From positions 1 to 32,041 of IMG/VR virus record IMGVR_UViG_3300024262_000149: a stretch of DNA of 32,041 bases. One strand, 5' to 3'. Origin of the DNA: a virus. Below the pieces are notes generated by a model, which was given only the letters and a program-made list of their open reading frames with translations, searched no databases and was not told the DNA's origin. Position numbers and translations under genes: made by a program. Shown here one piece after another: positions 121 to 32,041 of the stretch (within the stretch, counting starts at the first letter, position 1; every line of letters begins with the position of its first letter).

Positions 121-3100
121 TTATTTCCAAAGTTCAGGATTGTTAGGGAAAAGAGATTTAAGTTCTGCTTTCGTAGGCTGCTTAACCTTAGTAGACGAAC
201 CCTTAGATGGGTTCTGACCATACCCCGGACGATAAGAAGGAGATATGCCTGTCAAATCATATAAACTCTCATCGTCTCCCTGTCCTAATATCATCTCCCC
301 AAAACCAATGAACGGGTCTACCTGAGTTCCAATTGCCATTTCAAATACAGGTTGAATAATCTTTAAAGGTTCTCCTGTCTTCACTCCTTTTTCTACTTTT
401 CTAAGAACTGATGCAATAGGGTTTACAATATCGCTTGTAGGGCTCCTGTCTCCTCTTGATTTTTTAATTGCACTTTCTATTGCGGCACCGAGTAAAGGGA
501 TTTGGTACAATAAGTTCAGCCCCATCATTGCATCTTTCATTGACTGCAGTGCTGCCTCTTTATCTTTATCATTGCCTTTTGCGAACTTCATAATGTTTGC
601 CGCGAAAGCAAATGCTACGTTGGCTACTGCTAAGTTTAAGGTAAATGCTCTAATGTCTTTTGTCTTAACTTCCCCCGGCTTACCTTTTAAAATAGGTTGC
701 ATAATACGTGCGGCAGACTGCATAACCTTATTCATTTGCAAATAAATAGTACTACCAAACATTGTGACCGCCCTAAACGCAAAGTTTTGTTGCAGTTGTA
801 ATTGGTTCTTTTCAGTTGCTCGCCTTGTTTGCTGCGTTGCGTTGTAGTTATTGAACCTCTCTAACGCCTCAGCCTTACTCATCCCATTGGAAATATCTCT
901 ATTGTAGTTAGCCATATAGCCCATAACACCGAGCATATCTCCTGCAACAGTTGGCGCACCCCCCGCTTTTTTAAACCCACGAGAAAATTGTGCACTTCTT
1001 GAGTTGCCACGCGAAAGCGAAGGAACTACATTACGTCCTGATTCTAATCCGTAAACCTCTCCTTCCATTCCTTTTTCAAGACGATTTCTAAATGTAGCAG
1101 AAATTTCTGTTGCTTTTTTGACTTCGCTTCTGAGGTTAAATATAACTTTAGCATAGTCAAACGCAAACATAGGTATATCAATAAGAGTATCTACTCCTCG
1201 AATACGTTTATTTCTTGGTCTATAACTATAGTCTTCAAACGCCTGTACAAATGATGTTGCTTGTTTTAAAACTTGTATAGACTTAAATGCCAATGCAAAG
1301 CCTGTAAACCTACGGGCCAACCATTCAGCAACAGATTGAATTTTTGAAGCATCAGGGCCTGCGTTTGGATTTATAGCCGAATTAATTGAAAGTTTATACA
1401 ATGACTTCATCCCTGTTTGCTCAAGTAAAGTATTAACGGCAGGGTCACTCATTAAAGCATTTAACTTCTTCACTCCTTCAGCGTATGCCTTGTATCTTTC
1501 CATTGACTGAAAATGATTCTCGACTACGTTAATGAATCCGGGTTGAATATCAATGTCGTTTGTTCTATCTGTACGTTCTTTTAACGCAGGAGCATTCTCC
1601 GCATCAAAGATTCCATTAAAGTTTCCGTCTTGTAATAGTTTAACATTAGCCTTTGAACTTATAGTACGGGTTGGAAAATAATTAGGGACATATCCTAAGT
1701 TAGTATCGTTAACAGTCCTATAGACATCGTTTACCTCATCAAAATAAGTATCACTAAAATATTCAACCATCATATCAGCCATCTGCACCGCTTCAGGTCC
1801 AATGAAATCTTTAATGTCTTGAATTTTAGCATCTGAAAATCCCATCTTATTTAACTTCTCCATCTGAATACTGTTCTTTGAAAGAGCATAGATGCGCATC
1901 AATTGGTCTACGTTAAATGAATCAGAGAATGTATCCCCTGTTTTTGAATTAGTAATACCATCAACCTTTAGTGTTTCATCAGAAAGGTTTTCTCTAAACT
2001 GTTTGTATCCTTTAGTATTCCCGGGAATAGAATTTGCCATTCTATCCATCTGCTCTCGTTGTCTATAGTAACCCTTCAAGTAATTCTCATCCATTTGGTT
2101 TAGATACCGATAGACATTCTTTGTAAAGAATCCATCAGTATTTTTATCTAATATATTAGAGTAAGTGCCAAGATGTTGAATATAGTTTCTAAAGAAAGCC
2201 GCTACTCCAACACCATTGGTGAAATCGTACTGCTCAAAATAAGAACGGATGCCTTCCCATATTTTTAAACTTTTAAAGTTTTCCCAAATCTGTTTACGCT
2301 CTGCGTTTAGTTGAGTTATATTTTTAAGATTACCATTAGCGTTAAATAAAAACCCATAGTTTTTAGAGATTGAATTTTTGGCTTCTTGCGCCAACTCTAA
2401 GTTGTCCTGTGCGCGTAACGCTCTATTAGACTTGAGTCTTGCAATGGATTCTCCACGAGTAGATTTTAAATCTGCTAATATTTCTTTAGTCTCCTCAAGA
2501 GATAAGTTATCTAAATCTGAAAAAGTATCAAGAGCGAGGGCTTGGTTCAATATTTTTTGTTCTTTAACACTAAGCCTTTCTCCACGAGCATCTTTGTTAA
2601 TGGCTTCATCAACTATTAAGTTGCCGGTATCTTCATTTATTTCTTGAGTGCTTAGAATAAGTTGATTAAGAGCATCTACATCACCTTTAAGGATTGCGCG
2701 TAACACAGGTTTTGCTGCAGCAAAGAATGATTGTCCTTTGGCATCTAACCCTGCGCTTCTTCTTTTACCCGAATCGCTTACCGCTGCTTGAGATTTTTTG
2801 CTAACTAAATCAAAGATGTTTTTAACGACTTCTTTTTTCATCTTCGCTCTCTGCTGCTCAACAATTTTTAAAACCTTTTCAGTGTTTGCTTCAAACTTTG
2901 CAACATTGGTACCGGACACTAATGATACTAATTTATTAATATCAGCCTGAGAATATATATTTGACTTAGGTAGATTGGCACGAATGAAATTCTTCAATCT
3001 AATCTGAGCAGATTTTAAATTATTTTCCCCAATCCTTCTCTGCTTTAAATCGTTTCTAATGGCAGATATCTGTCTTTGTACGTTAGGGTTTGCCCTAATG

Positions 3101-6100
3101 CCTAAAGACTTATCAAACGCGCTTAGAATTTCTTTCTGAGTCTGTTCGGGTTGGTTTTTAAATATTTCATTTGCCTTCATTAATTCCATTCCCTTCTGAC
3201 GAATGTCTGCATAGGTCTTTGTTCTTACCGTTCCTACACCACCTCGAGGCCCCGCCACCGACCAATTGTTTAGAGCATTTCGCACTTCATTAAATAAAGT
3301 TCTTCCTTCTACAACACCCCCTTCAAGGTTCCCAAATTCGTAAGGCATTACAGTAAACAAGTCAAGCATATATTCAGGGCTCATTGCTGCAGTTATATCA
3401 GCGGCCTTAAATCCACGCCCTAATAAAACTTGCTTAATAGATGCATCCGAGAAACCGTTCTGCCGACCTTTTGCAACAATTGAATCCATAGATAGCCCCC
3501 TGCTAAAAGCAGCGTCAGGATTTTTTAATTGCTTTAACTGTTCGTCAGTCATCTTAATTTCCTTCCCATTAAAGATATCCGCCAAGGCAGTCCCAATAAA
3601 TTCATCGAGAGTAAGGTCTTGAATTTCTTGCTCACTCAAGTCTTTAGACATCTTAAACTGTTGCTTGATGTACTTCCACATTCCAAGAAGCCACTCTTCA
3701 AACTTACTTTGTATAGAGGCATCTGCAATTGTTTGGCCTTTGTTTCCAATAAGAACTGCTAAAGTTTCATTAGCCGCTTTTATAGAATCACCGTTAAACT
3801 TTTTTAATTGTCTTTGATACTCATCTGTCTGCTTTGCAAGTTCAAGTCCTTTAGCATATATCTGTTTACCTTTCTCTGTAGTTTTAAGATAGTCTGTCCA
3901 TACGTGACCCATCTCGTGAATCGTTGTATTAAACAATGCAGACTCACTACTGTGCACATCAGGATTAATATAGATATCTCCATTAGTAGTTACACCATAG
4001 ATAACCTCATCACCTTTTAAGTATTGCTGAACCCCTTCTGAATTGATTACATTATTAAATGTCTCTGAGTCTGTCGATATAACAACACTTGGGAAAGCAG
4101 TATTTAAAAAATTTGTTAGTTTGGTTGCATTACTTATGTCTCCATTAGCAACTGCCCCCACAAACTCAAGCCCCGGTAACCCGTTTTGGACACCAAGGGT
4201 TTCAGTTAATATAGTACCAATGCTCGATGGTTTAAGTTGACCCTCTTCTAAAGTCTCTACATTTTTTTTTGTTTTACTTTCCTCAACCTGCTTGTCGGTA
4301 TACTTTTTCCCTTTTGCCTCATCGTTTGTTAGGCCCTTTAGTGCTGAGTTATATGCTTCAGGATAGATGTCTTGAATAGCAGCAGACTCATTAAGAACAC
4401 CTATGCTTCTTCCTGCCACCCCGTATTTATAGTTTGGATGAGTTGTCTCTATAATCTTTGGATTCAATACATCAACTCCCTGAATAGAAACAATACTACG
4501 CTGAGGTACATTTTTTAATTGCGGCTCAGTAATTAAATCCGTTATTGAACCAAGGTTGAGTAGTGAAGCCATTTCCTTTGGCTGACCTTGAAGTAATGCT
4601 TTTGCTACAGGTGTGGTTGGTTGTCCCGGTTTTTTGGATTCGTTGGCTCTATTGGGGCTCCCATATGCAATTGATTCTATTAACATTCTTCTTGTAGGAA
4701 GATTGAACTTATCAAGAACATCTTTAGAAATCACATCTTCAATTGATTTTACATTTGATTCGTTAAGGACATTTAAGATATCTTGTAAGCCATCTGCTTC
4801 TTTCTTGTAATTTTTTATTGTATTATCAGTCTTTCCTTCAAGACCATTAAGTCTTGTATTAATAATATCTTGAAGTCTTGCTTTTAAAACATTTAATGCT
4901 TCTACTTTATTTTGCTCAGGGAATTTAGTTAAGTTGTCTTGGAGAACTCTAAACGTAGCCTCGTTAGAAAGAAGTGAACCCTCTCCCATCTTTACTACGT
5001 TCATTGGGACAAGCCCTTTGTATTCAGGATTGGCCGCCCACCATTTTTCAAATAAAGGTTTATTATTTTCGTACACACTTAGTGCTTTTGTGATAATAGT
5101 ACCCGCTTCTTTTTCAGTAGTATTAGCCCACGCTGCATCTTCTATGAAAGTATATCCAACCCCACCTTTTAGATTACTTATTGTATTTCCTGTATTTGGG
5201 TTTACCACATCTCCCGTAGTGAGTTGGTCTGTGATTGTGAATATAGAAGGGATGCCATTTGTAACATCTATGGAGATTGATTTTGGGGCCTTCGTTGTTC
5301 TGCTCCCTAATTCCACTGCATCAATTTTTACTCCTTGTGTCCTTGAAGACACAGTAGTAGACACATTACCTGATGGCATAGCATTTATTGCTCTAACTTC
5401 TGCTTCTACTTCATCAGCAGCCGGACCCACTTCATCTTCACTCTTTAATCTAAAGTCCACTCTTCCCTCAGGTTGAGACAATACGGTCTCAAGGTCTGAG
5501 ACCTCGCTTAATAATGCTTGACTTTCTTCCGGGGTTAAGTCTACAGGAGTCTCAACAACCCCTGCTTCTAATGCCTCTTCAGAAATTAAATCAACCCCCT
5601 CAGCCACCGGTGTTTCCACAAGTGTCCCGGTTTCATCAAGAGTTGTTTCGACACTTGGAGTCTTTTGATAGGGTAGTAATTTTTCCATTACCATATTAAG
5701 AACCTCCTCATCATTCTCAACTCTGCCATTAAAGTTTTTCAGTTCATCAACTGACATATTTTTAAGGCTCGCTAAGAACTGTTCTTTAGTAACTTTCTTC
5801 TTGCCAATTTGATATAGCGCAGGGGCCTGTCTAATGTCAGTCCCTGTTGATTGTTCTTCTGCAGACAACACACCCGTGCCCGCAAGCAGAGTTTGTTGGT
5901 CTCTGCCACGTACTTTTTTAGTAGTAGCAATCTCTTCCAACTCCGCGTTTATCTCAGATATTTTATTTGAGAAAACAGATTTTCTATTTGGAGTTGAACT
6001 TAACTCTTCTCTCGCAGCCAATAAAGTCATAACACGAGACTCTACTGCTCCACTATATTTCTTGCTATTCCCGCCAACATCTAAAAGGTTACGAGCCTCT

Positions 6101-8799
6101 GCTCTTAGCCCTACGTTTTCTTGGATTCGTTGGTTTTGGTCTGCGTCAATTTTACCGAGTTTATGCATATTATTTGCCCAATCCGCAATACTCTTATCAG
6201 AGGATACTTCACGAGACATAAAATCTAAGTTCATTAGATTTGTTGCTATACCAAGATTGGTTTTAGCCCTTGCGTTCTTTAACATATTTATCGCAACGTA
6301 AGATGAGTTGTTTCCAATACCCCCACCTGCTTCGGCAATAATTTCTTTATAATCAAGTTCATCTCCAACATTAATTTGAGCAAGAGTTTCTCCCAATGCT
6401 TCTGCCGCAGGGTCAACAAGCATACGCTCTGCTGCAACCGCGCCTATTCTTGCTCCTTTAGTTGCAACACTACCAACTTTAAACAACTTACCTACTGTTC
6501 CGGCTGATACGAAATCAACTAACGCAATTGGAATACCACGCTTTAAGCCTCGCTCTCTACCTAAGTCCCAAACACTTTCATCCCCTAACGCTGCGGCTAC
6601 AGACTCAGGGTCACTGATGTCATATCCTTGAGTGGTGATGGCATCAATCATTTCATTGCCATATTCCATAGCCAAAGAAGCCAAACCCATTCCTGTTCTG
6701 AACCCATACATCCCCCCTGTAACGGCACCGGCCCCTGTGGTAACTACACCCCCGGGCCCTGTTGCAAATCCTGTCGCTCCAATCCCGGCTCCAATTCCGA
6801 CTCCGGCTATAGTTGTAGTCGGCACAATCTTCATCCCATAAGGTAATAGTTGTGCCAAACTACCAAAAGCCCAAGCCCCAAATAATTCCGCAGGGTCACT
6901 TTTAATTACATCCCAAACTTCTTTACCCCCTGTGGCTTGAGCATATCTCGCTAATGCTCTTGACTGAGTATCGCCTTCAGCATTTGAATACTCAACAAGT
7001 TTCTCTGCTGCTTTTCTCTTTAGGTCGGGGTCGTTCATATCGTACTCAATGCCAAGAGTAGCCATAAGGATTACCTCAGCCGCAAGGCCACGGCTCCATC
7101 CTGTAGAAATTTCATCCACGACACCCGCTAAATTATCAGAGAACTCTTTACTAATAGTTTTATTTGCTTTAGCGTCATAGTAAGTGTTTGCAATTTCATA
7201 TTTATCAGCAGCATCTTGTTGTATTGACTGTAAAGACAGATAGTCTTTTAGTAATGCACTTGCTTGTTGTTGTTTTCTTGGGTCTTCTAATGGTAGATTA
7301 ATTAACTCTGCAGGGGAAACACCAAACTGCTTATACGAATCAATGGCAACTTGTTCAGCCTTTTGTTTTGCAAAATAGTTTTGTGTTACTGCAGTTTTGG
7401 AAAGTTCTATTTGTCGTTTAGATAGTTGTAAATCCCACGCCTCACGTTCTCTTTGAGAATCGTCATCCATTACTATATCATAAAGTTTGTCTTCTTTATA
7501 CTTTAAATCTTGTAATACTTTTTCATAATCGTCACGAAGAACACCATTAACAAAAAGGTTAGGATATTTCTTTTTACCGCTTGGGTCTAAATACCCATCC
7601 TTTGCGTCTTCAATAAAGTCGATTTTGTCTCTGACACTTATATATTCATCGTATCTTTTCTTTTCTTGGATGTAATCTTTATCAAACTGCTTATAGAAAA
7701 TCTGCCCTTCCGCGTCTAAATTACTAACGTCTTTCCAAGAACCTTCAGCAAATTTCTGCGCTTCTTCTTCACTCTTAAAAGAAAATACTTCGCCTCTTTT
7801 TTTAGCGAGTTCGTAAGCCTCCATCCCATCTAACTCTTGCCACCAATCAGGGTCTGAGCCATACGCACCTTCCCCATCATAAGGGAATAATGTAGGGTAT
7901 ACTACTTCTTTTCCGTCAATATTTGCGGATTGGAATTTAACAGTAGACACTGTGCCGTCTTCGTTTCTTCTGCCATTAGTCCGAAGTTGTTTGGCTCTCA
8001 TTGCCTTACTTATCTCATCGTCAACTACAGACCTTTCATCGGCAATATCTGCATTAACTCTAATGAACTCACGGAGTTTTTCTGACTCTGCAATTTCTCC
8101 TGAATCTGTCCAAGCATCAAGGTCAATTTGCATTGACTTACTGCCGTCTTTATTTTTTACTATAATATTATCTCCAAACCCAAGGAAGCCACCCTCTTCA
8201 AAAACAAACCCATACATCCCAAACTTTTCTCTAAGAATAGGTAATACCTCTGTATCGTTTTGGCCTATAAGGTTGGCATCTATAAGATTTAATTTTGCCG
8301 CAAAAGTGGGGTCTTGCCATAAACCTTCGCGTTGTGCTTTTTCAACACCACGAATTTCTTGTTTCTTTTTTTCTTCACCTTCTGCAAAGGCCGCCATATC
8401 AATGGGCCTTTGTTTCTCGTAGGCTTCTGTGGCTGCTTTTTGTTCAGCAAATTGTCTTGGGTCTATAACCGGACGAGACGCAACACGCGTATTGTCCTGA
8501 GCCACAACAGGTCTATCAAACCCTTGAGGCTCCAATGAACCATCTCCCAACCACGATACCATACCATCTTTTTTTTTTACAGGCTCACCTGTTGATGATA
8601 TTCTTTTCATAAATGCATCGACAGGAAGGGCCTGACTAAATGAAGCATCCATACCCACAATCCACTCATACATCTTTGCAGCATACGCTTTGTCTGCCGA
8701 CATCTTTTGTGCAAAAGATTCGGGAGTATGACCCGCCTTAAACGTCTCGTCTTGCGAGGTAATCCAAGTGTATAAACTATTTAAGTATTCTTCGTTCAT
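121..8799 (-). CDS. Giant internal virion/DNA-ejection protein (polyvalent protein) with zincin metalloprotease motif
   Basis: This 2892-aa protein is the largest in the window and ends the internal-protein trio, the position of T7 gp16. Seen: residues 9-33 and 43-67 are a duplicated YxWI-x3-D-x2-F unit. Residues about 290-360 (IDGKEVVYPTLFPYDG, then a Phe-Lys-Ser-Glu-Glu-Glu-Ala segment) resemble a recurring module of large phage virion proteins. Residues about 640-715 hold a Gly-rich hydrophobic stretch (VGIGAGIGATGFATGPGG) able to insert in membranes. A TIHEMGHVW motif lies at about 1626-1634, with NETLAVLIG about 46 residues later, giving a plausible zincin HExxH plus third-ligand Glu. 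A small helical GFSDASIKQVL-type unit sits near 1780, then long charged helices. Hydrophobic helices lie near 2710-2770. Inferred: it is packaged and ejected, may help form the DNA conduit, and may cleave virion or host proteins. No DxDGD RNA-polymerase motif was found. Confidence 0.75.
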   Translation of the reverse strand: MNEEYLNSLYTWITSQDETFKAGHTPESFAQKMSADKAYAAKMYEWIVGMDASFSQALPVDAFMKRISSTGEPVKKKDGMVSWLGDGSLEPQGFDRPVVAQDNTRVASRPVIDPRQFAEQKAATEAYEKQRPIDMAAFAEGEEKKKQEIRGVEKAQREGLWQDPTFAAKLNLIDANLIGQNDTEVLPILREKFGMYGFVFEEGGFLGFGDNIIVKNKDGSKSMQIDLDAWTDSGEIAESEKLREFIRVNADIADERSVVDDEISKAMRAKQLRTNGRRNEDGTVSTVKFQSANIDGKEVVYPTLFPYDGEGAYGSDPDWWQELDGMEAYELAKKRGEVFSFKSEEEAQKFAEGSWKDVSNLDAEGQIFYKQFDKDYIQEKKRYDEYISVRDKIDFIEDAKDGYLDPSGKKKYPNLFVNGVLRDDYEKVLQDLKYKEDKLYDIVMDDDSQREREAWDLQLSKRQIELSKTAVTQNYFAKQKAEQVAIDSYKQFGVSPAELINLPLEDPRKQQQASALLKDYLSLQSIQQDAADKYEIANTYYDAKANKTISKEFSDNLAGVVDEISTGWSRGLAAEVILMATLGIEYDMNDPDLKRKAAEKLVEYSNAEGDTQSRALARYAQATGGKEVWDVIKSDPAELFGAWAFGSLAQLLPYGMKIVPTTTIAGVGIGAGIGATGFATGPGGVVTTGAGAVTGGMYGFRTGMGLASLAMEYGNEMIDAITTQGYDISDPESVAAALGDESVWDLGRERGLKRGIPIALVDFVSAGTVGKLFKVGSVATKGARIGAVAAERMLVDPAAEALGETLAQINVGDELDYKEIIAEAGGGIGNNSSYVAINMLKNARAKTNLGIATNLMNLDFMSREVSSDKSIADWANNMHKLGKIDADQNQRIQENVGLRAEARNLLDVGGNSKKYSGAVESRVMTLLAAREELSSTPNRKSVFSNKISEINAELEEIATTKKVRGRDQQTLLAGTGVLSAEEQSTGTDIRQAPALYQIGKKKVTKEQFLASLKNMSVDELKNFNGRVENDEEVLNMVMEKLLPYQKTPSVETTLDETGTLVETPVAEGVDLISEEALEAGVVETPVDLTPEESQALLSEVSDLETVLSQPEGRVDFRLKSEDEVGPAADEVEAEVRAINAMPSGNVSTTVSSRTQGVKIDAVELGSRTTKAPKSISIDVTNGIPSIFTITDQLTTGDVVNPNTGNTISNLKGGVGYTFIEDAAWANTTEKEAGTIITKALSVYENNKPLFEKWWAANPEYKGLVPMNVVKMGEGSLLSNEATFRVLQDNLTKFPEQNKVEALNVLKARLQDIINTRLNGLEGKTDNTIKNYKKEADGLQDILNVLNESNVKSIEDVISKDVLDKFNLPTRRMLIESIAYGSPNRANESKKPGQPTTPVAKALLQGQPKEMASLLNLGSITDLITEPQLKNVPQRSIVSIQGVDVLNPKIIETTHPNYKYGVAGRSIGVLNESAAIQDIYPEAYNSALKGLTNDEAKGKKYTDKQVEESKTKKNVETLEEGQLKPSSIGTILTETLGVQNGLPGLEFVGAVANGDISNATKLTNFLNTAFPSVVISTDSETFNNVINSEGVQQYLKGDEVIYGVTTNGDIYINPDVHSSESALFNTTIHEMGHVWTDYLKTTEKGKQIYAKGLELAKQTDEYQRQLKKFNGDSIKAANETLAVLIGNKGQTIADASIQSKFEEWLLGMWKYIKQQFKMSKDLSEQEIQDLTLDEFIGTALADIFNGKEIKMTDEQLKQLKNPDAAFSRGLSMDSIVAKGRQNGFSDASIKQVLLGRGFKAADITAAMSPEYMLDLFTVMPYEFGNLEGGVVEGRTLFNEVRNALNNWSVAGPRGGVGTVRTKTYADIRQKGMELMKANEIFKNQPEQTQKEILSAFDKSLGIRANPNVQRQISAIRNDLKQRRIGENNLKSAQIRLKNFIRANLPKSNIYSQADINKLVSLVSGTNVAKFEANTEKVLKIVEQQRAKMKKEVVKNIFDLVSKKSQAAVSDSGKRRSAGLDAKGQSFFAAAKPVLRAILKGDVDALNQLILSTQEINEDTGNLIVDEAINKDARGERLSVKEQKILNQALALDTFSDLDNLSLEETKEILADLKSTRGESIARLKSNRALRAQDNLELAQEAKNSISKNYGFLFNANGNLKNITQLNAERKQIWENFKSLKIWEGIRSYFEQYDFTNGVGVAAFFRNYIQHLGTYSNILDKNTDGFFTKNVYRYLNQMDENYLKGYYRQREQMDRMANSIPGNTKGYKQFRENLSDETLKVDGITNSKTGDTFSDSFNVDQLMRIYALSKNSIQMEKLNKMGFSDAKIQDIKDFIGPEAVQMADMMVEYFSDTYFDEVNDVYRTVNDTNLGYVPNYFPTRTISSKANVKLLQDGNFNGIFDAENAPALKERTDRTNDIDIQPGFINVVENHFQSMERYKAYAEGVKKLNALMSDPAVNTLLEQTGMKSLYKLSINSAINPNAGPDASKIQSVAEWLARRFTGFALAFKSIQVLKQATSFVQAFEDYSYRPRNKRIRGVDTLIDIPMFAFDYAKVIFNLRSEVKKATEISATFRNRLEKGMEGEVYGLESGRNVVPSLSRGNSRSAQFSRGFKKAGGAPTVAGDMLGVMGYMANYNRDISNGMSKAEALERFNNYNATQQTRRATEKNQLQLQQNFAFRAVTMFGSTIYLQMNKVMQSAARIMQPILKGKPGEVKTKDIRAFTLNLAVANVAFAFAANIMKFAKGNDKDKEAALQSMKDAMMGLNLLYQIPLLGAAIESAIKKSRGDRSPTSDIVNPIASVLRKVEKGVKTGEPLKIIQPVFEMAIGTQVDPFIGFGEMILGQGDDESLYDLTGISPSYRPGYGQNPSKGSSTKVKQPTKAELKSLFPNNPELWK

Positions 8800-8808
8800 A
8801 ATGTTTTA

Positions 8809-10767
8809 TTATCGAGGTGCCTGTGTTGTGGCTCCTGTTGGAGGAGTTGCCGCAGTTGTTCTTTGTCTTGATGATTTTCCGGTAGGTTTACTCGTTGTTT
8901 TTTGGTCTTTACCAATCAGTAGGCTTTTACCCGCAGCGTCTGTAGCAGCAGCAATAGTGTTTTTCAGTTGCTTCATTATGTTTGCTTGGCCCTCCGCAGT
9001 CATACCGCCAAGGTCAATTTTCATAACTAATTGTTGTTTATCATCGAAAATCTCTACAACATCATAACCCGGTGCTGCTTCGTTTACGGTCCAATTTGAA
9101 CTCGCGGGAACACCTCTCAGCACTGCCTGTAAATTTGTTTTTGTTTTAGACTCATCGTCAGCCACAAGAACACTTGGGGCAAATCCTTTCTTCTCAGTAA
9201 GTATTCTTGTGAAAGCCTCATCAACACCCTCTGTCTGAGAAATTGTTCCTGAGTACTCCTTACTATAGGTTGTGTTTAATCCCTTACTTGGGTCTGCCCC
9301 ACTTGATGCCCACGTTTTATCTATGTCTGTAATCTTGTTTGCTACAGGAAGAAAGAAGTTTGCATTCCCTTTAACCCATTGTTCTTGACTAAGAGTGCCT
9401 GTATCATTTGCAAATTTAAGAACTTCTTCGTGACCATCTGCATAAACAACAATAACATCAGTTCCCGCCCTGTCTATAGAGGCGATATCCGCGTTCTGAC
9501 TTCTTAACCAAGCACCCGCTTCGTCTATTTCTTGGGGTGTACCATAATAAAGTTTGGCCACATTACCCATAAAACTTTGTTGTGCTTTTAGCCTATCTCC
9601 TCTTCCGGGGTCAGGTGGTGCGGGAGGAGTATTACCTCCTACTACTTGGCCTTTAACTTCAATATCTAAAGCACCACGCATTCTGTTAATGAGTCCTTTC
9701 TTAGCATTCTCGTAGTGTTCGTACCCTTGGCCTGAATCAAAGTTAGGCACCATTTGACCGTCAATTTGCGTAAGCAAAATAGTGTTCTCATCCTCTAAAT
9801 CAGGGTTGTCCGTAAACGTATAAGCCACTCCGTTAGGGGCGTAGCCTCCTAAGTTATTTGTAAGTAAAGAAGATACATTATAAGGGTTTGATAGTTGGCT
9901 TTCAGCCCAAGAGTCTTCTGTGGTCTGTATGTCACTAAGTAACTTAGCCTCTTCAGCCGTCATAATGCCTTGCTTAACCAACTCTTGAAGACCTGACGCA
10001 TTTCTAAGTTGCGGGCCATTAGCCGTCATCTGCGTACCCTTTTGATATAGGCCGCCTAAATCATTACTTACAACTGAAAACGCACCAAACGCACCTGCCT
10101 TCGCATCTGCAATTGAAGCGTCCATATCATAGGCATCAATCTTCCCTTTAATTCTATTGCGTAAGTTATTGATACCAACTAATTTACTTGGGTCTTTCTC
10201 TATCTCTCCATTAGCCCCCATAAATCCTACCATTACTTTCCCTGTTGTCGGGCTAATCATAAGTTTAGATTTAGTGAAATTACCAAAGCCTTCAGCAGTC
10301 CCCATAAGAAAAGTTTCTAATGCTTGAGCACCAACAATCGGCTTACCATCAGGACCAATAGTGCTCCCGGGCTTTGCTTTAGCGCGAGCCATCTTCTCAG
10401 CAAATTCATTTTGATATTCTTGTTGCAACGTAAACGCTTGGTCTGTACCGTCTGCTAAATTCTGACGGATAACAGTATAGTCTCTTGGTTTTAACTGACC
10501 GCTTTTTAAAAGGGCATTAGTCATCAACAACTGACTCTGAGCATCAGAAGCAAAATCTAATGACCACTCGTTCATATTCTTAGAATCTCCCATAGGGGAA
10601 TTTTTAAGAACATTCTCCATTTCACGGGTAGCCCTATCTATCTCTGCTTTCTTTTCTTCACGGACACGAACTTCCTCTTGAAGCATCCCCGAGAAGTTAG
10701 CACCAACCTCAGCCCAATTTATACTTTCAGAGGGGTCTCTCCTTACGTAACCTATTTTAGTAGCCAT
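8809..10767 (-). CDS. Internal virion/ejection protein, 652 aa (T7 gp15-like position)
   Basis: A 652-aa soluble, mostly helical protein. The first 55 residues are charged and coiled-coil-like (QEEVRVREEKKAEIDRATRE). The middle is Gly/Ala/Asn-rich, a proline patch (NTPPAPPDPGRG) lies around 390, and the C-terminus is Lys/Thr/Ser/Pro-rich and probably disordered. No signal peptide or clear membrane segment is visible. It lies between the 279-aa and 2892-aa genes, an order and size progression that parallels T7 gp14-gp15-gp16, the internal core proteins ejected with DNA. I assign the role from that context because I do not recognise a domain. The start sits in TAATATGGC: the upstream gene's TAA is followed by one T and this ATG, suggesting coupled re-initiation. 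An alternative is another cargo or tail-lumen protein. Confidence 0.55.
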   Translation of the reverse strand: MATKIGYVRRDPSESINWAEVGANFSGMLQEEVRVREEKKAEIDRATREMENVLKNSPMGDSKNMNEWSLDFASDAQSQLLMTNALLKSGQLKPRDYTVIRQNLADGTDQAFTLQQEYQNEFAEKMARAKAKPGSTIGPDGKPIVGAQALETFLMGTAEGFGNFTKSKLMISPTTGKVMVGFMGANGEIEKDPSKLVGINNLRNRIKGKIDAYDMDASIADAKAGAFGAFSVVSNDLGGLYQKGTQMTANGPQLRNASGLQELVKQGIMTAEEAKLLSDIQTTEDSWAESQLSNPYNVSSLLTNNLGGYAPNGVAYTFTDNPDLEDENTILLTQIDGQMVPNFDSGQGYEHYENAKKGLINRMRGALDIEVKGQVVGGNTPPAPPDPGRGDRLKAQQSFMGNVAKLYYGTPQEIDEAGAWLRSQNADIASIDRAGTDVIVVYADGHEEVLKFANDTGTLSQEQWVKGNANFFLPVANKITDIDKTWASSGADPSKGLNTTYSKEYSGTISQTEGVDEAFTRILTEKKGFAPSVLVADDESKTKTNLQAVLRGVPASSNWTVNEAAPGYDVVEIFDDKQQLVMKIDLGGMTAEGQANIMKQLKNTIAAATDAAGKSLLIGKDQKTTSKPTGKSSRQRTTAATPPTGATTQAPR

Positions 10768-10768
10768 A

Positions 10769-11608
10769 TTATTTTACAAGTGGATTGAATGGATTAGCAT
10801 AAGCGTCCGTATATTGTTTGTTGAAGTATAACATCTGCTTTTGTGCAGGCGTTAGTTCTCTTTTAAATTGTCTGTACTGTGAATTATTCATTGCTCCAAT
10901 TGCATCAAAGTCAAGATTGGTGAAGCCCTCTGAACCGGCAGCACCCATAGATTTACTTGCACCTCCGTCTTTTCCTAATACATTACCAAATTTTTGAAAC
11001 TCAGCAGAGTCTAAACTCATACCTGAAAGTGCGGCTTTTTGTGATTGCATATTTTGTTGATAAAGAGGGACCATTGCTAACCCTGCTTGTGCCGTTTGCC
11101 CAATGCCCTGAATGCCTGCCTGCGTTGCATCCGCTGCCGCAATACGAGCATCTGCTGCTGCCTGCTGCGCACCTTCAACCTCTTGCATATCCAAGTCTAC
11201 ATTGATATCACGAAGTCTTGACTCTTCTTCTAAGATGGCGTTTTCAATGTTAATAAGTTCATCCGACTGACGGTTTGTGATATCTGCCTGACTTGATTGT
11301 TGCCCCATTAAGACTTGACCTGCCGCTGATGCAGCACCCCTATCGCTATCCGAAGCAGCGTCAATAACTTGCTGACCCTGACTAAGCATAGCCAACCTTT
11401 CTTGGTTATATGGTTCTTTTTTGATGGACATCTGTTTAGCATAGTTTACCTGCAATGCTCTACGCGCCTCAGCAAGAGCCTTGTCAGCATCTGCTTCATA
11501 ACCCTCTTGAAGTCTCCTTTGTTTCCCCGCTTGTATAAACGAAGTTGCAGTCGTACCTGCACTGATTGCTAAACCTGCAATTGCCAATCCTGTTGCTAAT
11601 CCTGCCAT
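10769..11608 (-). CDS. Internal virion protein, 279 aa (T7 gp14-like), N-terminal membrane segment plus coiled coil
   Basis: The N-terminus (about 2-27) is hydrophobic and Ala/Gly-rich (GLATGLAIAGLAISAGTTAT) and could cross a membrane. It is followed by a long Gln/Ala/Glu-rich helical region (residues about 30-180, many QA, ADA and EEE stretches) and a C-terminal segment with RQFKRELTPAQKQMLYFNKQ. A short N-terminal hydrophobic helix followed by a long amphipathic coiled coil is the usual look of the smallest ejected core protein of podoviruses (T7 gp14), which inserts in the outer membrane. It is the first gene of the internal-protein trio. Its start overlaps the end of the cupin gene by 13 bp. 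Function is inferred from architecture and position; a tail-lumen protein is the main alternative. Confidence 0.6.
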   Translation of the reverse strand: MAGLATGLAIAGLAISAGTTATSFIQAGKQRRLQEGYEADADKALAEARRALQVNYAKQMSIKKEPYNQERLAMLSQGQQVIDAASDSDRGAASAAGQVLMGQQSSQADITNRQSDELINIENAILEEESRLRDINVDLDMQEVEGAQQAAADARIAAADATQAGIQGIGQTAQAGLAMVPLYQQNMQSQKAALSGMSLDSAEFQKFGNVLGKDGGASKSMGAAGSEGFTNLDFDAIGAMNNSQYRQFKRELTPAQKQMLYFNKQYTDAYANPFNPLVK

Positions 11609-31318: not shown

Positions 31319-32041
31319 TTAATTTAATTTTCTTTTCAATTCTTCAACCTCGTTAGTCAGTTCCTTTATTGCCTCGATTAATACACCGACAATGTTCCCG
31401 TAAGCAACTGACTTGTATTCTTCACCCTCTATCACTACTTCAGGTAAAATCTTCTCTACCTCTTGTGCGATGACTCCTAAGCCACGTACTCCGTCTTTAT
31501 CAAAGGTAACACCTCTAAGTGAATTAACCTTCTCTAAAGCGTTAGGAATAGTCTCTATGTTTGTTTTAAGTCTCTCGTCAGAGTAAGCAGTTATGTTTTG
31601 TGTTGCAGTGAAGTTTCCTGTATAAGAACCCGACATAGAAACAGTAACCGCACCTGAAGTTCCACCACCCGTTAAACCATTACCTACTCCTACTGATGTA
31701 ATGTCACCCACGTTAGTGGTATACCCTGCACCGTTGGTAATAGCATTGTTATTCAGAGATATATTAGCACTCCCATTAAAAGATACACCTGCAATTGTTC
31801 TTGCTGTTTGCAATACAGTAGCACTTCCTGCATTACCTGTAATTGTTGTTTGAACAACGTTAGGAGATGTATTAGCAAAGACTGTTCCTGTTAAAGAAAG
31901 ACCAGTTCCTGCAGTATAAGTCGTGTTGGTGTTAGTAGCCTCAATAGTTACACTCTTAGTTGCAGGGTCTGCAAGAAAACTTACATTAGTACCCGCTTTA
32001 AATATAGCAGTGTCATCATTGTTTGTTGCATCAAATAAAAC
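31319..32041 (-). CDS. Tail fibre with C-terminal S74 intramolecular chaperone, partial
   Basis: The frame is open to the window edge (240 aa visible), so the N-terminal shaft lies outside; a TTG at 31813 is not the real start. The visible part has Thr/Gly/Asn-rich beta-strand repeats (IEATNTNTTYTAGTGLSLTG, VGDITSVGVGNGLTGGG), typical of trimeric fibres. The last ~87 residues are a peptidase S74/endosialidase-type chaperone: AYSDERLKTNIETIPNALEK with the catalytic Ser-Asp pair, GLGVIAQEVEKILPEVV, then YGNIVGVLIEAIKELTNEVE, ending in a coiled coil. The family trimerises the fibre and then cuts itself off just before that serine. The domain is intact. The product binds the host surface. Confidence 0.88.
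   Translation of the reverse strand, partial: VLFDATNNDDTAIFKAGTNVSFLADPATKSVTIEATNTNTTYTAGTGLSLTGTVFANTSPNVVQTTITGNAGSATVLQTARTIAGVSFNGSANISLNNNAITNGAGYTTNVGDITSVGVGNGLTGGGTSGAVTVSMSGSYTGNFTATQNITAYSDERLKTNIETIPNALEKVNSLRGVTFDKDGVRGLGVIAQEVEKILPEVVIEGEEYKSVAYGNIVGVLIEAIKELTNEVEELKRKLN

What the first reader, a model, noticed from the sequence alone, without database searches (positions are those of the whole stretch)
121..8799. Giant 2892-aa ejection protein with an embedded zincin protease
A single virion-region protein combines a TIHEMGHVW zincin motif (near residue 1630) with a plausible third-ligand Glu, a Gly-rich membrane-like stretch (about 640-715) and hydrophobic C-terminal helices. 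A protease delivered with phage DNA could process virion proteins or attack host defences. Internal proteins this large with such a mix of domains are poorly characterised.
Basis: partly seen in the sequence, partly recalled or inferred. Interest (0 to 1): 0.65.

Follow-up and report, generated by a model that had tools for sequence, protein, structure and literature searches.

The report
Ejected giant phage protein carrying metalloprotease
A phage related to crAss-like and flavobacterial phages encodes a giant, cysteine-free protein that is very probably stored in the virus particle and fired into the host, and inside it sits a conserved zinc-protease-type domain; this is a new, well-preserved example of an already described strategy, and the protein that the protease cuts is unknown.

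Summary
The 2892-aa ORF lies on the minus strand at 121-8799, with one HExxH (residues 1628-1632). The domain around it recurs in over 100 viral contigs. In a set anchored on the protein's C-terminus, 61 of 61 copies keep HExxH, and in a 49-sequence alignment both His and Glu1678 are invariant. The AlphaFold model puts HExxH and Glu1678 on two confident helices, and its best solved relatives are nearly all zincins (lethal factor, IrrE, PPEP), at modest Z. The protein is the third of three genes (279, 652, 2892 aa) after the tail genes, matching N4 gp52-gp51-gp50 and T7 gp14-15-16. All three have no cysteine, as do N4 and P22 ejection proteins. So it is most likely an ejected cargo protein with a polyvalent-type metallopeptidase domain. 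The peptidase lies in an exchangeable cassette: relatives carry either this zincin or a diverged HE[VI]FH one, never both, and three complete relatives have none. This kind was described in 2017 (polyvalent proteins), and HExxH domains also sit in N4 vRNAP and, as seen here, in crAss001 cargo gp47. Substrate (self, ejected partners or host) is unresolved. New member of a known kind.

The parts
121..8799 (-). giant gene, 2892 aa, 0 Cys, 8 His; predicted ejected cargo protein
5677..8799 (-). N-terminal module, about residues 1-1041, present in about 70% of 60 non-redundant relatives found through the C-terminus
6655..6882 (-). Gly-rich, weakly hydrophobic stretch, residues 640-715
4270..5472 (-). 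companion domain, residues 1110-1510; confident AlphaFold model (pLDDT 85, pTM 0.82); best but weak structural rows are YTH/EVE/PUA-like
3550..4161 (-). zincin-type metallopeptidase domain, about residues 1547-1750
3904..3918 (-). HExxH, residues 1628-1632 (HEMGH)
3766..3768 (-). E1678, candidate third zinc ligand, invariant in 49 homologues, on the next long helix of the model
3952..3954 (-). H1616 at the end of the second strand, present in 41 of 49 homologues
124..3507 (-). C-terminal module, residues about 1765-2892, the most constant part of the family, with weakly hydrophobic stretches
8809..10767 (-). 652-aa gene just upstream, 0 Cys (phrog_35506); positional equivalent of N4 gp51 (644 aa)
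10769..11608 (-). 279-aa gene, 0 Cys (phrog_13764, virion structural protein); positional equivalent of N4 gp52 / T7 gp14

Best explanation
The gene encodes the third and largest ejection (cargo) protein of a short-tailed phage, probably of Bacteroidota. With the 279-aa and 652-aa proteins it is packed in the head, threaded through the tail in a largely unfolded state, and refolds in the host envelope or cytoplasm. Its middle carries a zincin-type metallopeptidase domain of the kind seen in polyvalent proteins (ligands H1628, H1632, E1678; general base E1629), next to an uncharacterised companion domain; more constant N- and C-terminal modules serve packaging and ejection. I think the peptidase most likely acts on the ejected proteins themselves (releasing parts of the giant or its partners once delivered), with cleavage of a host protein the close second. 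Shown here: the ORF, the conserved residues, the modular exchange, gene order and cysteine absence. Inferred: ejection, zinc binding, proteolysis, substrate. The confidence given is for an ejected protein with an active zincin; for the cargo-processing substrate alone it is about 0.4.
For: Both His, the base Glu and E1678 invariant in 49 sequences. In a C-terminus-anchored search, whose patterns do not involve the motif, all 61 profile-detected copies keep HExxH. AlphaFold model with pLDDT above 90 on both helices; pdb_via rows are nearly all zincins: lethal factor Z 6.7 (rmsd 4.6, 163 aligned), IrrE/PprI 5.8, PPEP 5.6, Zmp1 5.5. Gene trio order and sizes as in N4 (150/644/3500 aa) and cultured Flavobacterium phage elemoA (202/450/3694 aa). 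Cysteine: window trio 0 in 3823 aa; family giants 6 in 299,618 aa; ejection proteins of T7 1/2261, P22 0/1309, N4 0/4294, crAss001 cargo 7/7478, against 0.38-1.17% in other virion proteins. Publications tie the lack of cysteine in N4-like vRNAPs to passage into the cell (PMC2784036, PMC3715699).
Against: No virion proteomics for this phage. Sequence libraries give only sub-threshold zincin matches (SprT-like, M78, M91, MPTase-PolyVal). Foldseek against PDB gives nothing significant, and Z below 8 may mean only a common arrangement. Three complete relatives (L147, L159, L165) have no HExxH, so the domain is not always needed. N4 vRNAP, which has such a domain, is packaged unprocessed according to PMC5512222.
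Confidence: 0.72

Rival explanations
1. The zincin is a host-directed effector: after delivery it cuts a bacterial protein (defence, envelope or transcription factor) and the rest of the giant is mainly its carrier.
For: Cassette is exchangeable and mutually exclusive with a diverged HE[VI]FH zincin (10 loci, never together); central cassette is shared by proteins with different ends (L025, L061, L062, L064, L072); closest solved folds include effector and secreted proteases; some polyvalent MPTases are proposed to target host proteins (PMC5512222).
Against: Nearly universal retention (56 of 60 non-redundant relatives carry some HExxH domain) and similar domains in crAss001 and N4 giants of very different hosts fit a general ejection-linked role better than one host target.
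Confidence: 0.33
2. Prepackaging or in-head self-processing: the domain trims the giant before or during assembly, as proposed for phage P1 DdrB.
For: Proposal for polyvalent MPTases in PMC5512222; strict active-site conservation.
Against: N4 vRNAP with the same kind of domain is packaged unprocessed (PMC5512222). Modules on both sides are conserved together in most relatives.
Confidence: 0.15
3. The HExxH domain no longer cuts anything; it binds metal or only serves folding or regulation (in N4 the C-terminal region inhibits the polymerase).
For: N4 CTD, which contains the HExxH subdomain, is reported as autoinhibitory (PMC12633501). No cleavage by these giants was found in the passages read.
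Against: The general-base Glu has no structural need to be invariant, yet is kept in 49 of 49; HExxH intact in 61 of 61.
Confidence: 0.15
4. Chance HExxH in a helical giant protein without a zincin fold.
For: Foldseek PDB search not significant.
Against: Conservation, model topology and the string of zincin rows.
Confidence: 0.03

Closest known systems
Polyvalent proteins with zincin-like MPTase domains (Iyer et al. 2017, PMC5512222)
   Same: Very large phage protein near virion genes, HExxH plus Glu on a later helix, domain shuffling, more than one MPTase-like motif in some relatives (ctfjg026 two HExxH, L080 three)
   Different: No Pfam MPTase-PolyVal or LPD match above cut-off; no second enzymatic domain recognised in this protein
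N4 virion RNA polymerase gp50 with gp51 and gp52 (Schitoviridae)
   Same: Giant, cysteine-free, third of a size-ordered gene trio, internal HExxH domain (C1, residues 2124-2375, PMC12633501)
   Different: No PHROGs virion-RNAP match and no DxDxD/G motif; profile comparison with the N4 HExxH region inconclusive (14% probability)
crAss001 cargo proteins gp45, gp46, gp47 (PMC10172136)
   Same: Giant downstream of muzzle and cargo genes; gp47 is in virions by mass spectrometry in the paper, cysteine-poor, with HE[AS]FH kept in three further crAss-like phages read cleanly
   Different: No direct profile match of gp47 to this zincin (4.8% probability); link only through the HE[VI]FH variants (47% and 88%)
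Tenacibaculum phage Gundel_1 gp74, Flavobacterium phage elemoA gp21
   Same: Same gene order; Gundel shares this zincin at 32% identity, elemoA has the HEIFH variant; both giants have no cysteine
   Different: Outside the zincin no BLAST similarity to the window giant in Gundel; elemoA has none significant
T7 gp16 / P22 gp16 ejection proteins
   Same: Member of the ejection trio, cysteine-free
   Different: T7 gp16 is annotated with an endolysin domain, not a zincin; no sequence similarity found

Membership tests
Zincin metallopeptidase | HExxH motif, conserved | tested here: met
   49 of 49 aligned, 61 of 61 in the C-terminus-anchored set
Zincin metallopeptidase | Third ligand Glu on a following helix | tested here: met
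   E1678 invariant; model helix 153-178 carries it after HExxH helix 100-119; role as ligand inferred
Zincin metallopeptidase | Zincin fold | tested here: inconclusive
   pdb_via rows nearly all zincins, best Z 6.7; Foldseek E above 1
Zincin metallopeptidase | Zinc bound, ligand geometry, peptide cleavage | not testable with these tools
   coordinates and biochemistry not available
Polyvalent protein with MPTase (Iyer 2017) | Large multidomain phage protein encoded next to virion genes | tested here: met
Polyvalent protein with MPTase (Iyer 2017) | Mosaic domain architecture with exchangeable peptidase domains | tested here: met
Polyvalent protein with MPTase (Iyer 2017) | Domains of biochemically unrelated activities in one chain | tested here: inconclusive
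   only the zincin recognised; companion domain weakly YTH/EVE/PUA-like
Polyvalent protein with MPTase (Iyer 2017) | Phage clade with His at end of strand 2 and Asp three residues after HExxH | tested here: inconclusive
   H1616 in 41 of 49; Asp at the fourth position after the motif in 30 of 49
Podovirus ejection (cargo) protein | Third, largest gene of a small-medium-large trio after the tail genes | tested here: met
Podovirus ejection (cargo) protein | Cysteine (nearly) absent in the trio (empirical signature, not a formal criterion) | tested here: met
Podovirus ejection (cargo) protein | Present in virions and leaves with DNA | not testable with these tools
   needs proteomics before and after ejection
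N4-type virion RNA polymerase | Polymerase domain detectable | tested here: not met
   no PHROGs virion-RNAP or Pfam match; N4 gp50 itself matches phrog_2206 at 3964 bits

The most novel reading that the evidence does not exclude
Ejected giants of Bacteroidota podoviruses carry a dedicated peptidase slot, filled by one of several mutually exclusive zincins, that delivers an active protease into the host in the first minutes of infection to cut a host envelope or defence protein; selection against cysteine lets the chain cross the oxidising periplasm unfolded.
Probability: 0.28. Interest if true: 0.72.

Novelty: new member of a known kind. Interest (0 to 1): 0.45.

Why it matters
Giant ejected proteins are among the least understood parts of abundant Bacteroidota phages. 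A conserved, testable active site in a cultured relative (elemoA on Flavobacterium sp. BAL314) would let one ask directly whether phages fire a working protease into cells and what it cuts. The cysteine-free signature, seen here across T7, P22, N4, crAss001 and this group, offers a simple way to recognise ejected proteins in unannotated genomes.

Tried and rejected
Pfam, PHROGs, NCBIfam and PADLOC on the full protein: nothing above cut-off. Single-sequence and whole-length profile scans of viral contigs gave 0 and 2 loci; domain profiles worked. PDB sequence search with the zincin profile: only chance esterases at E about 1. Foldseek against PDB: no significant match for either model. N4 HExxH region against the zincin profile: inconclusive. 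RNA polymerase reading of the giant: no DxDxD/G motif and no family match. crAss001 gp47 zincin in IMG/VR: only crAss001 itself by single-sequence scan; tblastn in phages then gave distant relatives. One of the four distant relatives fetched (L174) was read in a frame with stops and is not counted as a clean case. Papers: no held paper joins 'crAss-like' with 'zincin'; the 2018 crAss genome paper is not held.

Full report
Observation. The window is a 32,041-base linear IMG/VR record. The ORF at 121-8799 is on the minus strand, starts with ATG and encodes 2892 aa. It has 8 His and no Cys; HExxH occurs once at 1628-1632, and none of 2000 shuffles of the sequence contains an HExxH. Residues 640-715 are 26% Gly. 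The best hydrophobic 19-mers lie at about 2719 and 2757 but are only borderline for membrane helices.

Neighbourhood. The genes run in one direction: Peptidase_S74-type tail protein (31319-32041, open at the record's end), terminase (phrog_6681), P22-like portal (phrog_6547), capsid protein (phrog_13704), tail proteins, a 1624-aa muzzle-like protein (phrog_14478), a muzzle C-terminal protein (Pfam crAss_MUZ_C, E 4e-19), a tail-fibre-like protein, then 279-aa, 652-aa and 2892-aa genes. The terminase is closest to MW202828 (75%) and then to cultured Flavobacterium elemo phages (46%). Relatives of the zincin lie in genomes of Cytophagales, Dyadobacter, Aquimarina and Runella, alongside some MAG contigs labelled Aliivibrio or archaeal. 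The host is therefore probably a member of Bacteroidota; this is an inference.

Conservation. A three-sequence zincin profile found 128 IMG/VR loci. That search used the motif itself as a pattern, so I repeated it from the C-terminal module (residues 2200-2892), whose patterns are unrelated to the motif. Of 76 loci covering the middle region (60 non-redundant by shared 6-mers), 61 have the window-type domain by profile and all 61 keep HExxH; 11 have only another HExxH domain; 4 have none, of which one is truncated and three (L147, L159, L165) are complete ORFs. An N-terminus-anchored relative (L084) also has it. In 49 aligned sequences H1628, E1629, G1631, H1632, W1634 and E1678 are invariant.

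Fold. AlphaFold2 on residues 1520-1790 with 49 sequences gave mean pLDDT 75 and pTM 0.73, with values above 90 over the HExxH helix and most of the helix with E1678. The second-look aligner's best rows are anthrax lethal factor (Z 6.7), IrrE/PprI (5.8), PPEP (5.6) and Zmp1 (5.5), then ACE2 and MATCAP: almost all zincins. Z stays below 8 and Foldseek alone found nothing significant in PDB, so the fold assignment rests on motif, conservation and topology together. Pfam gives sub-threshold zincin families for single members (SprT-like in 19 of 49, M78, M91, MPTase-PolyVal).

Mosaic. Some relatives share only the central part, about residues 1087-1806, and differ at both ends (L025, L061, L062, L064, L072). 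Conversely, relatives with the same C-terminal module carry a diverged HE[VI]FH zincin in the middle (10 loci), which never co-occurs with the window type. The two types align over 173 columns with HExxH on HExxH and the downstream Glu region in register (47% probability, E 2e-4), so they are probably distant relatives. A third type (HE[FI]GH followed by an aromatic-rich segment) is present in L112 and, as an additional copy, in ctfjg026. L080 has three HExxH copies.

Companion domain. Residues 1110-1510 give a confident model (pLDDT 85, pTM 0.82). Foldseek finds nothing; the second look lists YTHDF1-3 and the proteins PH1033 and Atu2648 (EVE-type by my own knowledge) on top (Z 4.1-5.5). This suggests a PUA/EVE/YTH-like barrel, which in characterised cases reads modified nucleic acid bases (own knowledge), but the scores are too low to claim it.

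Ejection. N4 has genes of 150, 644 and 3500 aa in the same order, and the last is the ejected vRNAP. In the N4-like phage DEV the equivalent three are ejection proteins likened to T7 gp14, gp15 and gp16 (PMC10925440). The cultured elemoA phage has 202, 450 and 3694 aa and a HEIFH zincin in the last. Cysteine is absent from the whole window trio. 101 giants of the family hold 6 Cys in 299,618 aa against 0.9% in other ORFs of the same contigs (that control includes some spurious ORFs, and the window's own capsid, portal and tail proteins are cysteine-poor too). In known systems, ejection proteins of T7, P22, N4 and crAss001 hold 1/2261, 0/1309, 0/4294 and 7/7478 Cys, whereas other virion proteins of those phages have 0.38-0.78%. 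Lack of cysteine in N4-like vRNAPs has been noted and tied to passage through tail and periplasm (PMC2784036, PMC3715699), and used to guess a vRNAP in StenR_269 (PMC10747016). The comparison here suggests that it is a property of ejection proteins in general, so by itself it does not mark a polymerase.

Function. Invariance of the general-base Glu argues for catalysis. Near-universal retention, with similar HExxH domains in giants of crAss001 (HEAFH, kept as HE[AS]FH in three more crAss-like phages read cleanly) and N4, argues for a general role linked to the ejected proteins. Exchangeability and occasional loss argue for an accessory, possibly host-directed, role. I put delivery-linked processing of cargo slightly ahead of a host-directed effector; neither is shown. 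Iyer et al. listed the same options for such domains in 2017.

Verdict. It belongs to a known kind; what is added here is a large conserved family, the mutually exclusive peptidase cassette, the ejection-trio context and the cysteine signature.

Noticed in passing
window 121-11608; L166-L169, L002, L183: Ejection proteins of unrelated podoviruses are almost cysteine-free (T7, P22, N4, crAss001, Gundel, elemoA, this family), unlike other virion proteins; in the held papers searched this was noted only for N4-like or putative vRNAPs.
   Followed up: partly
window 4270-5472: Companion domain next to the zincin, confident model, weak YTH/EVE/PUA-like resemblance; might read modified bases.
   Followed up: partly
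window about 7717-7965 (residues 279-361): Segment with DGTVSTVKFQSANIDGKEVVYPTLFP matches Pseudomonas phage Littlefix at 37% and is missing from the ctfjg026 BLAST alignment: looks like a mobile small module.
   Followed up: no
L169:26120-33145 (crAss001 gp47): Cargo protein annotated as RNA-polymerase subunit carries a C-terminal HEAFH zincin-like motif and an exonuclease-like PHROG match at residues 1703-1862.
   Followed up: partly
L080: Giant of at least 4669 aa with three HExxH copies in one chain.
   Followed up: no
window 31319-32041: Tail protein, open at the record's end, with a C-terminal Peptidase_S74 chaperone domain (E 1e-17).
   Followed up: no
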